From the NCBI GenBank assembly GCA_035765535.1, contig DASTXE010000001.1:124001-188000 (forward strand): a DNA stretch of 64,000 nucleotides. Direction: 5' to 3'. The notes below the pieces were generated by a model. The model was not told the DNA's origin and searched no databases. It worked only from the letters and a program-made list of their open reading frames with translations. Of this stretch, positions 6,720 to 49,431 are shown one piece after another; the first letter of the stretch is position 1; every line of letters starts with the position of its first letter. The DNA comes from Rickettsiales bacterium (lineage in GTDB: Bacteria; Pseudomonadota; Alphaproteobacteria; Rickettsiales; JABCZZ01). A program made the translations under genes and the position numbers.

Positions 6720-6753
6720 TTGTCATCATATTGTAATGATTGCATGGTATAAA
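6720..6753 (+). promoter_or_regulatory. PhoB-box-like direct repeat with -10 element
   Basis: TTGTCAT at 6720-6726 and TTGTAAT at 6731-6737 are two seven-base direct repeats separated by four bases, the layout of a Pho box (CTGTCAT-N4-CTGTCAT). Ten bases later a TATAAA (6748-6753) can serve as the -10 element, the spacing seen at PhoB-activated promoters. The start codon of the orphan gene follows 30 bases on. Similar motifs sit upstream of the orphan genes at 10693 and 48391. Binding by PhoB is inferred from the pattern only. Confidence 0.45.
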
Positions 6754-6783
6754 TTGTCATAGAGTCCATTGAAGGGGAAAACT

Positions 6784-8160
6784 ATGCCTGTTGTGCAAGA
6801 CAATATCAATCCCACTGCATCCGCTACCCAGCCCGCGCCTGCACCGGATACGCACAATGGGGCTGCCGTCGCACAGCAAACAACCAATCCTGTTCCCGCA
6901 CAATCCGCCGCCATGGGTACGGCTGCACAGGACCATAACATATTTGCGGATATGACACGGCAGACGGCAGAGCAGGATCTTGCCTATCTGTTTGACGGTA
7001 AACTGACAAGCGCCACGATTACCCATAAGCATGCTCCGGTTACGATGCATAAGGATGAAAATCCCCTGCATATGCATATGGACGATGATCAGGAACGGCT
7101 CCGTATTGCTCTTAAGTTCAAAGATAACAACACGGAACCGGAAGCGGCGATACAACAGATCCAGCAGGTAGTGGGCAATCTTCCCGGGTTTGAAATATTC
7201 AATAAACTCCAACCCATGCAGCCTGCCGGTGATCAGATAAAAGAGCTGGTGCAGGTCAATATGGCGCAGGAAGGGAAAAATGCGCATGGCTTCACGCCCG
7301 ATGAAGCGGCAATGCTATTAAAATGGGCGGATATTAAAGAAAAAGCAGACCCCACCATTAACAACATAACCAACCAGCCTATCGGTACGCATTACTGGCT
7401 GGAAAATTCTGCGCAGAACCCCGACAGGGTTGTGCAGGTGGCCGAAAATATAGAGGCGCGTGCGGAAGCCATTAAGGCTTTCGTCACAGAGAGTGCGGCG
7501 CAGGAGATTCAGAAATCCAATGCCCCCAATGCGGCTGAGCTTCTGGCGGAGTTGCAGAATCTACAAGTACAGGTAATACATTCGCAGAGCGGTGAATATG
7601 GCAGCATTAATGTGAAGTTCGGTCTTCCCGGCACGCCTGATCCGCAGCATCCGGAGAAACCACCTGAGCTGATGCCTTCCAAAGCGCTGGAATATCTGAT
7701 GACACAGCACTCGCAGGGACAAGAATCTTCAAAGGGAGAAAACCTGGTACGCTATGCAACTACTTTCGTTGGCGATAATTGGGGCGCGGCTTTCCCTCAT
7801 CTGGCAGGATATCATGAGATGAAAGGGTTCTTGGAGGATCGAGCAGCGGCTAATAGCCAGATAAAAGCAAAAGTGGATGCAATCACCGGCAGCGATGAGT
7901 TCATGACGCCCTTGCAGCGTGATGAGCAGGGAAAGCAGGAAGCGAATTTCAGGATCACCACTCCCGGATTCCACCACAAGGACGATTACGGGGTGGACCT
8001 TGCGCTGCCCAAAGGTATGAAGGCGGAACAAATATACGGTGCTATTGTGCAGGCTGCCAACGCGAAAAAAGAAGTGGATAAGGCTAATCAGCCCCCCACC
8101 ACTGTCCAGAATCCGCAAACAAGACCGATACAGGTATCTGCGCCGGCTATGCGGCTGTAA
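6784..8160 (+). CDS. Orphan protein, unknown function
   Basis: I do not recognise this 458-residue protein. The ATG at 6784 is chosen over an in-frame TTG at 6769 because GAAGGGGAA lies just before it. The first 60 residues are Ala, Pro, Gln and Thr-rich and look disordered. The remainder is a soluble alpha/beta-like sequence without a signal peptide or transmembrane segment. It has several His/Met-rich spots (ITHKHAPVTMHK, NPLHMHMDDDQ). The C-terminus is Pro/Gln-rich. It stands alone, with a Pho-box-like promoter in front and no partner gene. Its disordered, Gln-rich ends without export signal resemble the other orphans at 10693 and 48391. Confidence 0.7.
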   Translation: MPVVQDNINPTASATQPAPAPDTHNGAAVAQQTTNPVPAQSAAMGTAAQDHNIFADMTRQTAEQDLAYLFDGKLTSATITHKHAPVTMHKDENPLHMHMDDDQERLRIALKFKDNNTEPEAAIQQIQQVVGNLPGFEIFNKLQPMQPAGDQIKELVQVNMAQEGKNAHGFTPDEAAMLLKWADIKEKADPTINNITNQPIGTHYWLENSAQNPDRVVQVAENIEARAEAIKAFVTESAAQEIQKSNAPNAAELLAELQNLQVQVIHSQSGEYGSINVKFGLPGTPDPQHPEKPPELMPSKALEYLMTQHSQGQESSKGENLVRYATTFVGDNWGAAFPHLAGYHEMKGFLEDRAAANSQIKAKVDAITGSDEFMTPLQRDEQGKQEANFRITTPGFHHKDDYGVDLALPKGMKAEQIYGAIVQAANAKKEVDKANQPPTTVQNPQTRPIQVSAPAMRL

Positions 8161-8211
8161 GCATGACTCAGTAGCTTGATTTCCGGCTGCTCTGTGTGTA
8201 AAAAAAGCGCT

Positions 8212-8358
8212 ATGGAAAAAAACGAACCTGTTAAGCAGTCACAGCCAGCGGCAAAATCGGATCAGTCCGATCGGAAAAAGCAAAAACTTGCTGAGGCACT
8301 GCGCCGCAATCTGGTCCGCCGCAAACAGGCTGTTCCCAAACAGGATAAGAATCAATAA
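8212..8358 (+). CDS. Small basic protein
   Basis: A 48-residue, highly basic protein with core KLAEALRRNLVRRKQAV. Very short proteins with a LAxALRxNLxRRK core occur in many alphaproteobacteria as far as I recall, always without a known function. The frame is open from 8176, but the ATG at 8212 gives the most compact product; no strong ribosome binding site precedes it. It ends head-to-head with the Sel1-repeat gene, overlapping its stop by a few bases. It could bind nucleic acid or ribosomes because of its charge; that is only a guess. Confidence 0.55.
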   Translation: MEKNEPVKQSQPAAKSDQSDRKKQKLAEALRRNLVRRKQAVPKQDKNQ

Positions 8359-8876
8359 GGCATCGGAGTCGTTACGTTCGTAACGGGTTCCCATTGCTTG
8401 GACTTCTTGCGTGCCTCTTCAATTTCCGGCTCCGTCATAGACCAGGCAACATCATTGCGCAATGAATAGGCGCGGTAGTCGCCGTTCTTCGCAGCAAGAT
8501 CGAACCACATGTAGGACAATACTTTATTCATCGGGATGCCGCCACCGCCGCGATAGACGAATCCCATGGCAAACTGTGCGTCGGAAAATCCCTGCATGGC
8601 GGATTTATAATACCATTTGGAGGCTTCTTTATCGCTCTGCGGCAATCCGCCATCGCCCTTGAGATAAGCTTCGCCGAGATTGAACTGCGCTTCCGCGTCA
8701 TTCTGTTCAGCCTCGGTGCGCCATTTGGCGATTTCTTCTTTGGTGGGGGGATCGGTCTCTGCATCATCATAGGCGAAGACCGGTGCTGAAACGGCCAACA
8801 ATAAAGCAAGAAAAAGCCACTGCACCCGCAAAAGAGGCGTCCTCAGAAGGCTTGCAATCTTACCATTGTCATACAT
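8352..8876 (-). CDS. Secreted Sel1-repeat protein (copy 2)
   Basis: A 174-residue exported protein. The N-terminus has a basic region and a hydrophobic core (LFLALLLAVSAPVFA), with cleavage likely after VFA. Sel1/TPR-like helical repeats follow: AEAQFNLGEAYLKGDG, then KWYYKSAMQGFSDAQFAMGF and VLSYMWFDLAAKNGD. Sel1 proteins are protein-binding solenoids. The ATG at 8876 is preceded by GGAG inside the last codons of the upstream paralogue. The open frame continues further upstream, but that region is the end of the neighbour. It is about half identical to the next gene, so the two arose by tandem duplication. Confidence 0.85.
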   Translation of the reverse strand: MYDNGKIASLLRTPLLRVQWLFLALLLAVSAPVFAYDDAETDPPTKEEIAKWRTEAEQNDAEAQFNLGEAYLKGDGGLPQSDKEASKWYYKSAMQGFSDAQFAMGFVYRGGGGIPMNKVLSYMWFDLAAKNGDYRAYSLRNDVAWSMTEPEIEEARKKSKQWEPVTNVTTPMPY

Positions 8877-8880
8877 AGCT

Positions 8881-9369
8881 TTACTCCGAACCCAGATAAT
8901 GTTTGCGTTCAGGCTTCCATTCATCCGATTTCTGTTGCGCCTCGTTGACCTCCGTTTGTGTCATCGCCGATGCGACATTATCGCGCAATGAGGCTGCGCG
9001 TTCATCGCCATTCTTAGCCGCAAGATCAAACCACATATACGACAAAACCTTGTCAATGGGAATACCATTGCCACCGCGATAGACGAATCCCATCGCAAAC
9101 TGGGCAGGCGTATAACCCTGCATGGCCGATTTGTAATACCATTCAGCAGCTTCTTTTTCGTCCTGGTGAACGCCTTCGCCTTCAAGGTAAGCTTCCGCAA
9201 TTTGGTACTGTGCTTCTGCATCTCCCTGTTTGGCCTCTTCCAGCGTACGCGCAAGTTGCCCTTTGGTGGGAAGGTTATCCTCATTGGCATAAGCTGCTGT
9301 ACCGACAGCAGAGGAAATAACTGCCAGAGCGCACGCAAGCGCTATATTTCTGTATGACCGAAAGCGCAT
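8881..9369 (-). CDS. Secreted Sel1-repeat protein (copy 1)
   Basis: A 162-residue exported Sel1-repeat protein, first of a tandem pair. The signal peptide is IALACALAVISSAVGTAAYA, with cleavage expected at AYA-NED. The repeats are AEAQYQIAEAYLEGEG, EWYYKSAMQGYTPAQFAMGF and VLSYMWFDLAAKNGD, nearly the same as in the following gene. A strong GGAGGCC site lies five bases before the ATG. Its last codons contain the ribosome binding site of the second copy, so the pair is translated together. The likely place of action is the periplasm; partners are unknown. Confidence 0.87.
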   Translation of the reverse strand: MRFRSYRNIALACALAVISSAVGTAAYANEDNLPTKGQLARTLEEAKQGDAEAQYQIAEAYLEGEGVHQDEKEAAEWYYKSAMQGYTPAQFAMGFVYRGGNGIPIDKVLSYMWFDLAAKNGDERAASLRDNVASAMTQTEVNEAQQKSDEWKPERKHYLGSE

Positions 9370-9380
9370 CAGGCCTCCAA

Positions 9381-10154
9381 TTACGTCTTAAGTTTATACC
9401 CTATACTTATCAGATGCTGAGCAAGACACCACAGCATAAGGTCCGTTATACAGATAACCGCAATTCCAATTGTGATGGAGCCGTCGGCATATCCGGTAAA
9501 AGCATAGCGAAAACCGTCGATCATGTAAAAGAATGGATTGAAGTGGCACACATGGTACCAGAAAGCAGGAAGCTGGCGAATGGAATAGAAGGTGCCGGAG
9601 AGAAAGGAAAGGGGGGTGATCACATAATTGGTGATAGCCGAAAGCTGGTCGAATGACTGGGAGCGTATACCCGTCAGCAGGCCGATAAGAGCAAGCATGA
9701 GGCTCGAAGCAAGCAGGTAAAATAATGCTATGCCCCAGTGGTGCACATGATAGGGCACGAAAATATAGACGGCCGTCGCCACCACGATGCCCACCAGCAT
9801 TCCGCGCGTCAGTCCGCCCATCGTCAGGCCGAGAGTGATTTCCGTGCCGCTTAAAGGGGGCATCAGCAGGTCAATGATCACGCCCTGGATCTTTGACAGC
9901 ATCAGGGATGAGGAGGTATTGGCAAAAGCATTCTGCACGATCGCCATCATGATAAGGCCCGGGGCAATGAAATCAGTATAAGCAATGCCTTCCACCGGAT
10001 GATGCTGGCGCGAGCCAAGCGAAAGGGTGAGCACGGCAAGGAACAGAAGGGTTGTCACGGCGGGGGCAAACAGGGTCTGGTTGAATACTTTGAGAAACCT
10101 GTGCACCTCACGCCTGTAGAGCGTCCATAATCCAAGCCAGTTAATATTACCCAT
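9381..10154 (-). CDS. ABC-2 type transporter permease (YadH-like)
   Basis: A 257-residue inner-membrane permease of the ABC-2 family with about six transmembrane helices. It starts WTLYRREVHRFLKVFNQTLF, typical of permeases that export polysaccharides, lipids or drugs. Later helices include TNYVITPLSFLSGTFYSI, with the conserved family proline and glycine residues, and the loop NPFFYMIDGFRYAFTG. The ATP-binding subunit, usually next door, is not present: the upstream gene is tadA, ending one base before this start, and downstream are the Sel1 proteins. The ATPase must be encoded elsewhere or the gene has been separated from it. The substrate is unknown. Confidence 0.87.
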   Translation of the reverse strand: MGNINWLGLWTLYRREVHRFLKVFNQTLFAPAVTTLLFLAVLTLSLGSRQHHPVEGIAYTDFIAPGLIMMAIVQNAFANTSSSLMLSKIQGVIIDLLMPPLSGTEITLGLTMGGLTRGMLVGIVVATAVYIFVPYHVHHWGIALFYLLASSLMLALIGLLTGIRSQSFDQLSAITNYVITPLSFLSGTFYSIRQLPAFWYHVCHFNPFFYMIDGFRYAFTGYADGSITIGIAVICITDLMLWCLAQHLISIGYKLKT

Positions 10155-10155
10155 A

Positions 10156-10614
10156 CTATCTCTTTGCCGCGAAAAACGTTTTCAGTAACTGAGCGCAAGC
10201 CGTCTCCTCCATACCGCCTATAACTTCCGGCGCATGATGGCAAGAGGCTTGATGGAAAATTCGCGCACCATTTTCCACACCGCCACCTTTGGGATCATAT
10301 GCGCCGAAATACAGCCGCCGGATACGGGCAAACGAAATGGCCTGCGCGCACATGGGGCAGGGCTCCAGTGTCACATACAGGTCGCAGGAAGGCAGGCGGG
10401 GAGTGCCCAATAAGCGGCATGCCTCACGCAAAACCAGCATTTCCGCATGGGCGGTCGGGTCCTGTTGGCATTCCGTCAGGTTATGCGCCTGGGCAAGAAC
10501 CTGGCCGCTTATACTGTCAACAACCACCGCCCCGACCGGCACTTCACCAGCCTGCGCAGCAAGCTGAGCCTGCGCAAATGCCAGTTCTATAGGTCTTTTT
10601 AACGATATTGTCAT
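10156..10614 (-). CDS. tadA: tRNA-specific adenosine deaminase
   Basis: TadA converts adenosine 34 of tRNA-Arg(ACG) to inosine, allowing it to read several arginine codons. The zinc site and catalytic residues of the cytidine-deaminase fold are present: TAHAEM (His56, Glu58) and LEPCPMCAQA (Cys86, Cys89). GEVPVGAVVV is the usual first strand. At 152 residues it has normal bacterial length. The ABC-2 permease begins one base after its stop. Its start codon lies inside the Pho-box-like motif that faces the divergent orphan gene, so the two promoters share very little space. Confidence 0.93.
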   Translation of the reverse strand: MTISLKRPIELAFAQAQLAAQAGEVPVGAVVVDSISGQVLAQAHNLTECQQDPTAHAEMLVLREACRLLGTPRLPSCDLYVTLEPCPMCAQAISFARIRRLYFGAYDPKGGGVENGARIFHQASCHHAPEVIGGMEETACAQLLKTFFAAKR

Positions 10615-10625
10615 GAAATCTTCAT
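10608..10625 (+). promoter_or_regulatory. PhoB-box-like direct repeat
   Basis: TTGTCAT (10608-10614), GAAA, TCTTCAT (10619-10625). The 21 bases from 10606 agree at 19 positions with the motif in front of the orphan gene at 48391. The spacing of the two seven-base repeats (four bases between) fits a Pho box, although the second repeat matches only its TCAT half. TAATAT at 10640-10645 is a possible -10 element, 14 bases downstream. The motif overlaps the tadA start codon on the other strand. Confidence 0.45.
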
Positions 10626-10692
10626 ATTTTTCTATGTTCTAATATGGTTTCGCCTGAGTTACAATGAAGAACAGTTTAACAGGCTCAGTTTT

Positions 10693-11367
10693 ATGGCTGA
10701 AACAACAACCAATAAGCAGCACGACAAACAGCAGGATAAGCAGATAGAGAACGAACTTGGCATCAGCAAGAACGTCTATGCTGCGGGGAATGCTGTCAAA
10801 CAGGGTTTTATTGCAACGGCGGGGCTTTTTGTTGCGATATTTGCATTACTGCAATATGGCGACAAGATTCCGCTCCTGGGCAAGGCTGTAAAGCCTCTGA
10901 CGAAGGCCATCAAAGCATTGCATGACAGTCACTACGGTCTGGCGCCATTATATAAGAAGATAACCGGCAATGAATTAAAGTCCGACGAAGGCATAGGCGC
11001 GGTTATAGCAGTGTCCTTTGTGGCATCGGGGCTATTAAGCCACTTTTTTCAGATTGCCGGTGTAAAAAGCGGTCGTGGCAGAGCCTCTGCTGCTATTGAG
11101 AAATACCACTCCACTTTAGCGGAAAACCAGCAGTTAAAACAGGAACTGGCGCAGTATCAATCAGGACAGTCTGGAGCTTCACAATCTGCACCTGCCCAAT
11201 CTGCATCCGCGACTGAGCAGGGGCAGTCTCATCCTCAGGAAACTACAGAGGCGGCTAATAGCAATAGTGGCTTCCGCGATAAGGTCCCCCAGCAGAACGC
11301 TGGCGGATTCAGCCAGGGAGTTGAGCAGGCCAAGCAGCAGGAACCTGCGCTCGCCGGGCGTCACTAA
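10693..11367 (+). CDS. Orphan membrane protein, unknown function
   Basis: A 224-residue protein that I do not recognise. The N-terminus is hydrophilic and Gln/Lys/Asp-rich (KQHDKQQDKQIENELG). Two hydrophobic segments follow, GFIATAGLFVAIFALLQYG near residues 38-56 and GAVIAVSFVASGLLSHFF near residues 102-119, so it probably spans the inner membrane twice. A short coiled-coil-like stretch (STLAENQQLKQELAQYQ) leads into a Gln/Ser/Ala-rich disordered tail. There is no signal peptide or known motif. A Pho-box-like repeat lies upstream, and the gene stands alone between tadA and the PhnP-like gene, converging on the latter with a 4-base overlap. Confidence 0.7.
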   Translation: MAETTTNKQHDKQQDKQIENELGISKNVYAAGNAVKQGFIATAGLFVAIFALLQYGDKIPLLGKAVKPLTKAIKALHDSHYGLAPLYKKITGNELKSDEGIGAVIAVSFVASGLLSHFFQIAGVKSGRGRASAAIEKYHSTLAENQQLKQELAQYQSGQSGASQSAPAQSASATEQGQSHPQETTEAANSNSGFRDKVPQQNAGGFSQGVEQAKQQEPALAGRH

Positions 11368-48263: not shown

Positions 48264-48316
48264 CTTTAAGCATTAAAAAGGCTTAAGTGGCGGAAAGTTC
48301 AGGATGTCTTTATATA

Positions 48317-48334
48317 TTGTCATATAATCTTCAT
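48317..48334 (+). promoter_or_regulatory. PhoB-box-like direct repeat
   Basis: TTGTCAT (48317-48323), ATAA, TCTTCAT (48328-48334). Over the 21 bases from 48315 it agrees at 19 positions with the motif at 10606. The A/T spacer agrees well with the Pho box spacer. The best -10 candidate, TATACT at 48356, is 21 bases on, further than usual, so the promoter layout is uncertain. The start of the orphan gene follows 56 bases after the motif. Confidence 0.45.
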
Positions 48335-48390
48335 ACACCGTTAAGTTTTATCGGTTATACTAAAGTGATGTTCATAGTGTGGAATGCTAA

Positions 48391-49431
48391 ATGGCCGTCA
48401 TTGATATAGATCTAGGAAAAATGGGCAAATACGATGCTTTCGTGGCCGAGCTCGTTCGCAGTTTTGATGTACGAGAAAGCACCCCAGGTAATCCGAATCA
48501 TTTACTGATTACTCCCAAAGGATCGACGACACCGGTAGGCAGTATAGAAAAAGGGGCGATGCATAACCGTCTTCGGTATGATTCAGATCAGGATGCAATA
48601 GCTGCGGCAGTACTGGTCAGTCATGGAAAAGAGTATAATATATCCAACGATGCCGCGCGGATATACTTTGCGATAAGAGAGCGTGAGGTAAATGATAGAG
48701 TAGTGGGAGATGGGATGAAAGGCCCAAATCCCGAAGATCCCCTGAAAATTTTCTATCGGGATGGAACGCTATATGTGTCACCGGAATATGTTAATATTCA
48801 TCTCCCCCATAAAAATGCGCATACCGGAATGCTAAAGACTGCTGAGGAACTGGCAGATAAGGGAGGCATGTCGCGCAGGCAGATAACCACTGACGATATA
48901 ACTACGCTTACAAATCTTCAGCAGGCTCATGGAAGAGATATCAAACTTTTAACCTATAAGGATAGTGGCGGACAAGACGTAACAGTGATGTATGACCGGG
49001 GTAAAGTGAGAGACGAGAGAGTGCTGGCTGTATATTCTGCAGCAGGCGGCAGGGGCTATGTCAATCAGCGCGCCCTGAATGATTACGGAGTGCAAATCGC
49101 CTCCGGTAAAGGAGAATTATTTCCGTCAGGTGGCGGAAACAGCAATGGCAATAATGATCAGGGCATGAGCGATAATACCAAGCATGGCCTGGCGGCTATG
49201 GCTGTTGCCGGTGCGGCTGTTGCTGCAACTACATGGGCATCACGCACCCAGCGTGACAGACAGGAAACAGCTGCAATGGAAGGCCGTCCTCCCGAGCGCA
49301 GAGGAGGCATGCTGCAGTTTGTGAAAGTGGCTTCGGTTGCGTTGGCCACCACTGCGCTTCTTACAGCACTGGATGCAGGCCTGAATAAAGGCCGTGCATT
49401 CGATTCCGTAAAAAATACCCTTAGCCGTTAA
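48391..49431 (+). CDS. Orphan membrane protein, unknown function
   Basis: A 346-residue protein that I do not recognise. The first 260 residues are soluble and mixed alpha/beta (AVIDIDLGKMGKYDAFVAEL, later DPLKIFYRDGTLYVSPEYVN). A Gly/Asn-rich linker (SGGGNSNGNNDQG) leads to two hydrophobic helices near the end, LAAMAVAGAAVAATTWAS and FVKVASVALATTALLTALDA. They are separated by a charged loop, so the large domain probably faces the cytoplasm with a C-terminal hairpin anchor. No signal peptide or enzyme motif is seen. A Pho-box-like repeat precedes it. Its stop codon abuts that of the next, convergent gene. Confidence 0.7.
   Translation: MAVIDIDLGKMGKYDAFVAELVRSFDVRESTPGNPNHLLITPKGSTTPVGSIEKGAMHNRLRYDSDQDAIAAAVLVSHGKEYNISNDAARIYFAIREREVNDRVVGDGMKGPNPEDPLKIFYRDGTLYVSPEYVNIHLPHKNAHTGMLKTAEELADKGGMSRRQITTDDITTLTNLQQAHGRDIKLLTYKDSGGQDVTVMYDRGKVRDERVLAVYSAAGGRGYVNQRALNDYGVQIASGKGELFPSGGGNSNGNNDQGMSDNTKHGLAAMAVAGAAVAATTWASRTQRDRQETAAMEGRPPERRGGMLQFVKVASVALATTALLTALDAGLNKGRAFDSVKNTLSR

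What the first reader, a model, noticed from the sequence alone, without database searches (positions are those of the whole stretch)
6720..10625. Shared Pho-box-like motif before three orphan genes
Motifs before the genes at 10693 and 48391 agree at 19 of 21 positions (TATTGTCAT, two variable bases, AATCTTCATA). The motif before 6784 has the same TATTGTCAT with a second half TTGTAAT at the same spacing and a -10 box ten bases on. All lie 46-67 bases before a gene that has no known homologue. The 7-4-7 direct repeat fits PhoB. This could be a lineage-specific phosphate-starvation or stress regulon.
Basis: partly seen in the sequence, partly recalled or inferred. Interest (0 to 1): 0.65.

Follow-up and report, generated by a model that had tools for sequence, protein, structure and literature searches.

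The report
PhoB-box regulon of orphan genes
A repeated DNA switch that looks like the binding site of the phosphate regulator PhoB sits before dozens of unknown genes in a deep-branching Rickettsiales bacterium and its relatives, which suggests that an old nutrient regulator controls a private, possibly secreted, set of proteins.

Summary
The motif is real. The two strong sites (10608, 48317) match at 19/21 positions, with no comparable match in shuffled sequence. The 6720 site is the third best in the window but borderline alone (1 of 20 shuffled windows scores as high). Genome-wide, the pattern gives 17 hits against 1 for a reversed control, mostly intergenic. A -10 box follows at about 9, 20-22, 31-33 or 42-43 bp, an 11-bp phasing far above chance. 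Several orthologous or paralogous genes carry a site. The matrix also recognises E. coli pstS, phoA and phoB boxes. The genome's PhoB has E. coli PhoB's recognition helix. In 131 genomes of the order the motif is enriched tenfold where PhoB is present and 1.5-fold where absent. So Pho boxes bound by PhoB is the best reading. The targets are not classical Pho genes: in the window's genome pst and phoB lack the box, and nearly all tested targets have no Pfam family. The order is very probably Rickettsiales, with a duplicated VirB4. Targets as type IV secretion substrates is a testable guess. The phosphate signal is untested.

The parts
6720..6737 (+). weak Pho-box-like site TTGTCAT-CATA-TTGTAAT
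   Evidence: matrix score 15.5, third best in window; 1 of 20 shuffled windows reaches this
6748..6753 (+). -10-like TATAAA, 10 bp after the last repeat
   Evidence: sequence; same phase as other sites of the genus
6784..8160 (+). orphan gene, 458 aa (P0001)
   Evidence: no Pfam match
10597..10603 (+). possible extra upstream half-site TTTTAAC, one 11-bp step upstream
   Evidence: matrix hit 10.5 at 10597
10608..10626 (+). Pho-box-like site TTGTCAT-GAAA-TCTTCAT-A
   Evidence: 0 mismatches to the pattern; matrix 29.0
10660..10665 (+). -10-like TACAAT, 33 bp after the motif
   Evidence: orthologue L102 also has TACAAT at 33
10693..11367 (+). orphan gene, 224 aa (P0002), ends ...ALAGRH
   Evidence: no Pfam above cut-off; 40% identical over 149 aa to G002 L102 protein, which also has the site
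48317..48335 (+). Pho-box-like site TTGTCAT-ATAA-TCTTCAT-A
   Evidence: 0 mismatches; matrix 27.8
48356..48361 (+). -10-like TATACT, 20 bp after the motif
48391..49431 (+). orphan gene, 346 aa (P0003), hydrophobic C-terminal helices, ends ...NTLSR
   Evidence: only a sub-threshold DUF5671 match; no relative found in genome contigs

Best explanation
The motif is an array of 11-bp direct repeats (TTGTCAT NNNA NYTTCAT A ...), i.e. Pho boxes bound head-to-tail by the genome's single PhoB. Bound PhoB sits in register, by whole 11-bp steps, with a -10 box and recruits sigma-70 polymerase to roughly 20-40 genes for lineage-specific proteins, among them the genes at 10693 and 48391 and probably 6784. 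Shown by computation: motif, phasing, sites before related genes in related genomes, PhoB presence and helix, co-occurrence. Inferred: that PhoB is the binder, that it activates, and what signal it carries. The products may be substrates of the order's VirB/D4-like (rvh) type IV secretion system; that last step is a guess and not part of the confidence given here.
For: 17 vs 1 and 46 vs 12 hits against reversed controls. 60 of 82 -10-like boxes fall on four 11-bp-spaced positions; shuffles give 9.5 +/- 2.9, maximum 19 of 1000. Related genes carrying a site: P0002/L102; L296/L024/L103/L119; L017:16164/L110/L121; L121/L299. PhoB at C3:165561, TIGR02154 339.8 bits, over cut-off; recognition helix RTVDVHIRRLRK as in E. 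coli PhoB structures 3t72/1qqi/1gxp, not shared by the other ten OmpR-type regulators. Matrix from this clade scores E. coli pstS 21.5, phoB 15.5, phoA 13.9 (reached by about 2.5e-5 or fewer of random 18-mers), using sites of PMC3465305. Across 131 genomes: PhoB over cut-off 536 vs 51 control hits, no PhoB 363 vs 239, Mann-Whitney p = 1.5e-9. Other families replicate the layout: 26 of 31 hits intergenic with PhoB, 3 of 17 without, -10 at 9 and 20-22.
Against: No site before phoB, recG-phoR-pstCA or pstB in the window's genome. At family level the PhoB association is weak (p = 0.12, 15 vs 12 families), and PhoB is lost together with other genes in reduced genomes. PhoB-bearing families f24 and f26 lack enrichment. 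The hits with the loosest match include background. No binding or expression data exist.
Confidence: 0.75

Rival explanations
1. The sites are bound by another OmpR-family regulator with the same 7-4-7 geometry, for example one of the four KdpE-like regulators, and PhoB has a different regulon here.
For: Eleven OmpR-type DNA-binding domains, four of them KdpE-like; pst and phoB lack the box; M. tuberculosis PhoP also binds 7-bp repeats with a 4-bp spacer (PMC4832192 abstract).
Against: Only PhoB has the E. coli recognition helix; the matrix recognises E. coli Pho boxes; enrichment follows PhoB over the order.
Confidence: 0.17
2. PhoB-bound as in the best explanation, but a true phosphate-starvation regulon whose unknown products scavenge or save phosphate (a narrower version of it, not an alternative binder).
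For: PhoB, a PhoR-like kinase (TIGR02966 308.8 bits, below its cut-off 334.2), PstC, PstA and PstB are present; one site lies next to ppk, pointing away from it.
Against: None of the phosphate transport or regulation genes tested carries a strong site in the window's genome; targets have no enzyme or transporter families.
Confidence: 0.3
3. The motif is an AT-rich promoter or UP element, or a dispersed repeat, with no specific regulator.
For: Some hits in G008 and G022 lie in repeat-like sequence or next to phage-like genes.
Against: Specific bases TTGTCAT/TTCAT with about 1.1-1.8 bits at most positions; reversed control with the same composition gives few hits; 11-bp phasing.
Confidence: 0.03

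Closest known systems
Pho box / PhoB regulon of E. coli and rhizobia (CTGTCAT-AWAW-CTGTMAY; PMC3465305, PMC4415409, PMC3131613)
   Same: 7-4-7 direct repeats with 11-bp period, AT-rich spacer, PhoB with the same recognition helix, tandem repeats
   Different: second half-site here is mostly NYTTCAT; many -10 boxes lie one to three further 11-bp steps downstream; targets are orphan genes; pst and phoB lack the box in this genome
PmrA or CpxR control of Dot/Icm effectors in Legionella and Coxiella (from general knowledge; not tested here)
   Same: one OmpR-family regulator with direct-repeat sites controlling many lineage-specific proteins in a bacterium with a type IV secretion system
   Different: different regulator, different site, different secretion system; secretion of the present proteins is unproven
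rvh type IV secretion system of basal Rickettsiales (PMC9352585, PMC10847448)
   Same: duplicated VirB4 present; PMC9352585 found no experimentally verified T4SS effectors in the two basal families it describes
   Different: the present genome's family was not identified by name; no link between its proteins and rvh is shown beyond co-occurrence

Membership tests
Pho box (PhoB site) | two 7-bp direct repeats with 4-bp AT-rich spacer, 11-bp period | tested here: met
   third and further repeats visible in G001
Pho box (PhoB site) | sequence agrees with known PhoB boxes | tested here: met
   matrix scores E. coli pstS, phoA and phoB boxes highly
Pho box (PhoB site) | a PhoB with matching DNA-binding residues is encoded | tested here: met
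Pho box (PhoB site) | PhoB binds the site | not testable with these tools
   needs gel shift or footprint
classical Pho regulon | box before pst, phoB or other phosphate genes | tested here: not met
   recG-phoR-pstCA, pstB and phoB upstream regions of the window's genome score 1.8 or less; in G001 a weak box (14.8) drives a 45-aa ORF about 330 bp before phoR; pstS not searched
classical Pho regulon | induction by low phosphate | not testable with these tools
   no expression data
type IV secretion effector regulon | secretion system present | tested here: met
   VirB4 family PF03135, two copies in the window's genome, at least two in 20 of 28 relatives; the copy at C4:87830 lies among VirB-like genes (by inspection)
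type IV secretion effector regulon | targets carry a translocation signal | tested here: inconclusive
   arginine in the last two residues in 18 of 45 targets vs 55 of 367 controls (p = 1.5e-4), but chosen after looking at the data; net charge of the last 30 residues does not differ
type IV secretion effector regulon | targets are translocated | not testable with these tools
   needs an assay

The most novel reading that the evidence does not exclude
In basal Rickettsiales PhoB has been recruited to control a large set of lineage-specific proteins that are the substrates of the rvh type IV secretion system, before the order became obligately host-bound. The Pho-box array would then be a genome-readable label for the unknown effectors.
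Probability: 0.3. Interest if true: 0.82.

Novelty: new variant of a known kind. Interest (0 to 1): 0.62.

Why it matters
What the type IV secretion system of early-branching Rickettsiales delivers is unknown; PMC9352585 found no verified effectors in the families it describes. A regulatory signature shared by dozens of otherwise unrecognisable genes gives a list of candidates that sequence similarity alone could not give. It would also be a case where PhoB controls a mainly lineage-specific gene set without the usual pst genes. I found no paper on a PhoB regulon in Rickettsiales in the library searched; most subscription journals are not in it.

Tried and rejected
P0003 as query in genome contigs found no relative. 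Structure predictions of P0003 alone (mean pLDDT 48.6) and of the L296 family with three sequences (45.0) are too weak for fold searches; only the first 90 or so residues of the L296 family form a confident small alpha/beta domain. A chance origin was rejected. The C-terminal arginine signal was tested after being noticed, so it is exploratory; about half of a handful of box-linked proteins of other families have arginine near the end, no stronger than in the first set. N-terminal hydrophobic stretches do not differ from controls.

Full report
Observation. The two strong sites are at 10606-10626 and 48315-48335 and agree at 19 of 21 positions; the pattern has no match in 100 shuffles. The third site, TTGTCAT-CATA-TTGTAAT at 6720-6737, is weaker. 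A matrix from 58 sites of the same genus and family ranks these three first in the window (29.0, 27.8, 15.5). One of 20 shuffled windows exceeds 15.5, so the third rests on its position: intergenic, a -10 box ten bases on, an orphan gene 47 bases on.

Genome-wide. The window lies in a 2.6-Mb genome (G000). TTGTCATNNAATNTTCATA with up to two mismatches has 17 hits against 1 for the reversed pattern. A looser pattern gives 46 vs 12 in G000, and 31 vs 12, 33 vs 8 and 34 vs 9 in three relatives of the same genus or family. Fourteen of the 17 lie outside ORFs of 100 aa or more, whereas about 7% of window positions do.

Promoter architecture. For the 87 sites of the four genomes outside ORFs of 100 aa or more, -10-like hexamers cluster at about 9, 20-22, 31-33 and 42-43 bp after the motif. 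60 of 82 fall there against 9.5 +/- 2.9 in shuffles (maximum 19 of 1000). Some G001 sites show up to five repeats in 11-bp register, for example TTGTCAT-AAAA-GTTTCAT-CAAA-TCTTCAT-AAAA-CTGTAAT. This is what tandem Pho boxes look like (PMC4415409). The start codon usually follows within about 20-110 bp of the -10 box.

Conservation. The 10693 protein is 40% identical over 149 aa to a G002 protein whose gene has the same site and the same TACAAT at 33. L296 and L024 (both G000), L103 (G002) and L119 (G001) form a second family, all with sites. L017:16164, L110 and L121 form a third; the G000 copy has TTGTAACACAATATTAACA with TACAAT at 9. L121 and L299 form a fourth.

Which regulator. PhoB is at C3:165561 (TIGR02154, 339.8 bits, cut-off 296.2), alone between hisS and pheS. 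Its helix RTVDVHIRRLRK is that of E. coli PhoB; none of the other ten OmpR-type proteins has it. The matrix gives E. coli pstS 21.5, yddV 20.2, phoB 15.5 and phoA 13.9, using ChIP-chip sites of PMC3465305. In 131 genomes of the order, the 49 with PhoB over cut-off have 536 hits against 51 control; the 72 without have 363 against 239 (p = 1.5e-9). Relatedness is not corrected; by family p = 0.12. Three of the eight exceptions without PhoB are incomplete genomes of families that have it. In other families, hits are intergenic in 26 of 31 cases with PhoB and 3 of 17 without. The binder is therefore probably PhoB, by inference.

What is controlled. In G000 the upstream regions of recG-phoR-pstCA, pstB and phoB have no box. 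Thirteen tested G000 targets have no Pfam family above cut-off; exceptions outside that set are a small DUF1150 protein and secA, which lies about 500 bp behind a box. Of ten targets from relatives, one has a family above cut-off: L344 with PG_binding_1, CHAP being just below its cut-off. Of ten ordinary window genes nine have families. The control genes were picked by hand, not at random.

Lifestyle. All 28 genomes searched have VirB4-family proteins, 20 of them two or more copies, and six have ATP/ADP translocases. A named PhoB relative at 74% is a Rickettsiales MAG. A duplicated VirB4 (RvhB4-I/II, PMC11077975) marks the rvh system, so the order is very probably Rickettsiales and this a large-genome, basal-type member; the family is not named here. 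PMC9352585 found no verified effectors for rvh in the basal families it describes and suggested peptidoglycan-binding proteins as bacteria-killing substrates; L344 under a box fits that loosely. A box (20.2) also precedes a protein ending ARGR beside a VirB-like cluster. Arginine at the last two residues is enriched among targets (18/45 vs 55/367), but this was seen before it was tested. Secretion is thus a hypothesis.

Verdict. Real, probably PhoB-bound, a lineage-specific regulon; not a classical phosphate regulon as far as tested; function of the products unknown, with type IV secretion substrates the most interesting testable reading.

Noticed in passing
window 8352-9369, minus strand: Two adjacent Sel1-repeat proteins lie between the 6784 and 10693 orphan genes; they look like a duplicated pair.
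   Followed up: no
L045, L047, L048, L049 (G000): Four KdpE-like response regulators, most without an obvious KdpD beside them.
   Followed up: no
L248, L017, L249 (G000): The Pho signalling genes are scattered: phoR-pstC-pstA directly after recG on C5, pstB on C6, phoB between hisS and pheS on C3.
   Followed up: partly
L298 (G000) and L334 (G002): A conserved variant site TTGTCTTATTAACTTCATR with TACAAT at 33-34 precedes a stretch with 44% identity over 80 residues that may be a small gene or an RNA.
   Followed up: no
L344 (G003): A 490-aa protein with a peptidoglycan-binding domain and a sub-threshold CHAP domain, downstream of a box with TATAGT at 21.
   Followed up: partly
L034 (G000 C2:142187): A box lies about 90 bp upstream of polyphosphate kinase but points away from it, towards a 70-aa ORF ending in a zinc-ribbon-like CxC...CxxC pattern.
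   Followed up: no
L249 minus strand 10469 (G000 C3): A strong box CTGTCACAAAAACTTCAC (22.5) in the gap after hisS has no clear ORF downstream on its strand.
   Followed up: no
L113, L115, L116, L118, L328, L331 (G001): Arrays of several repeats precede short, mostly membrane proteins with similar leader sequences.
   Followed up: no
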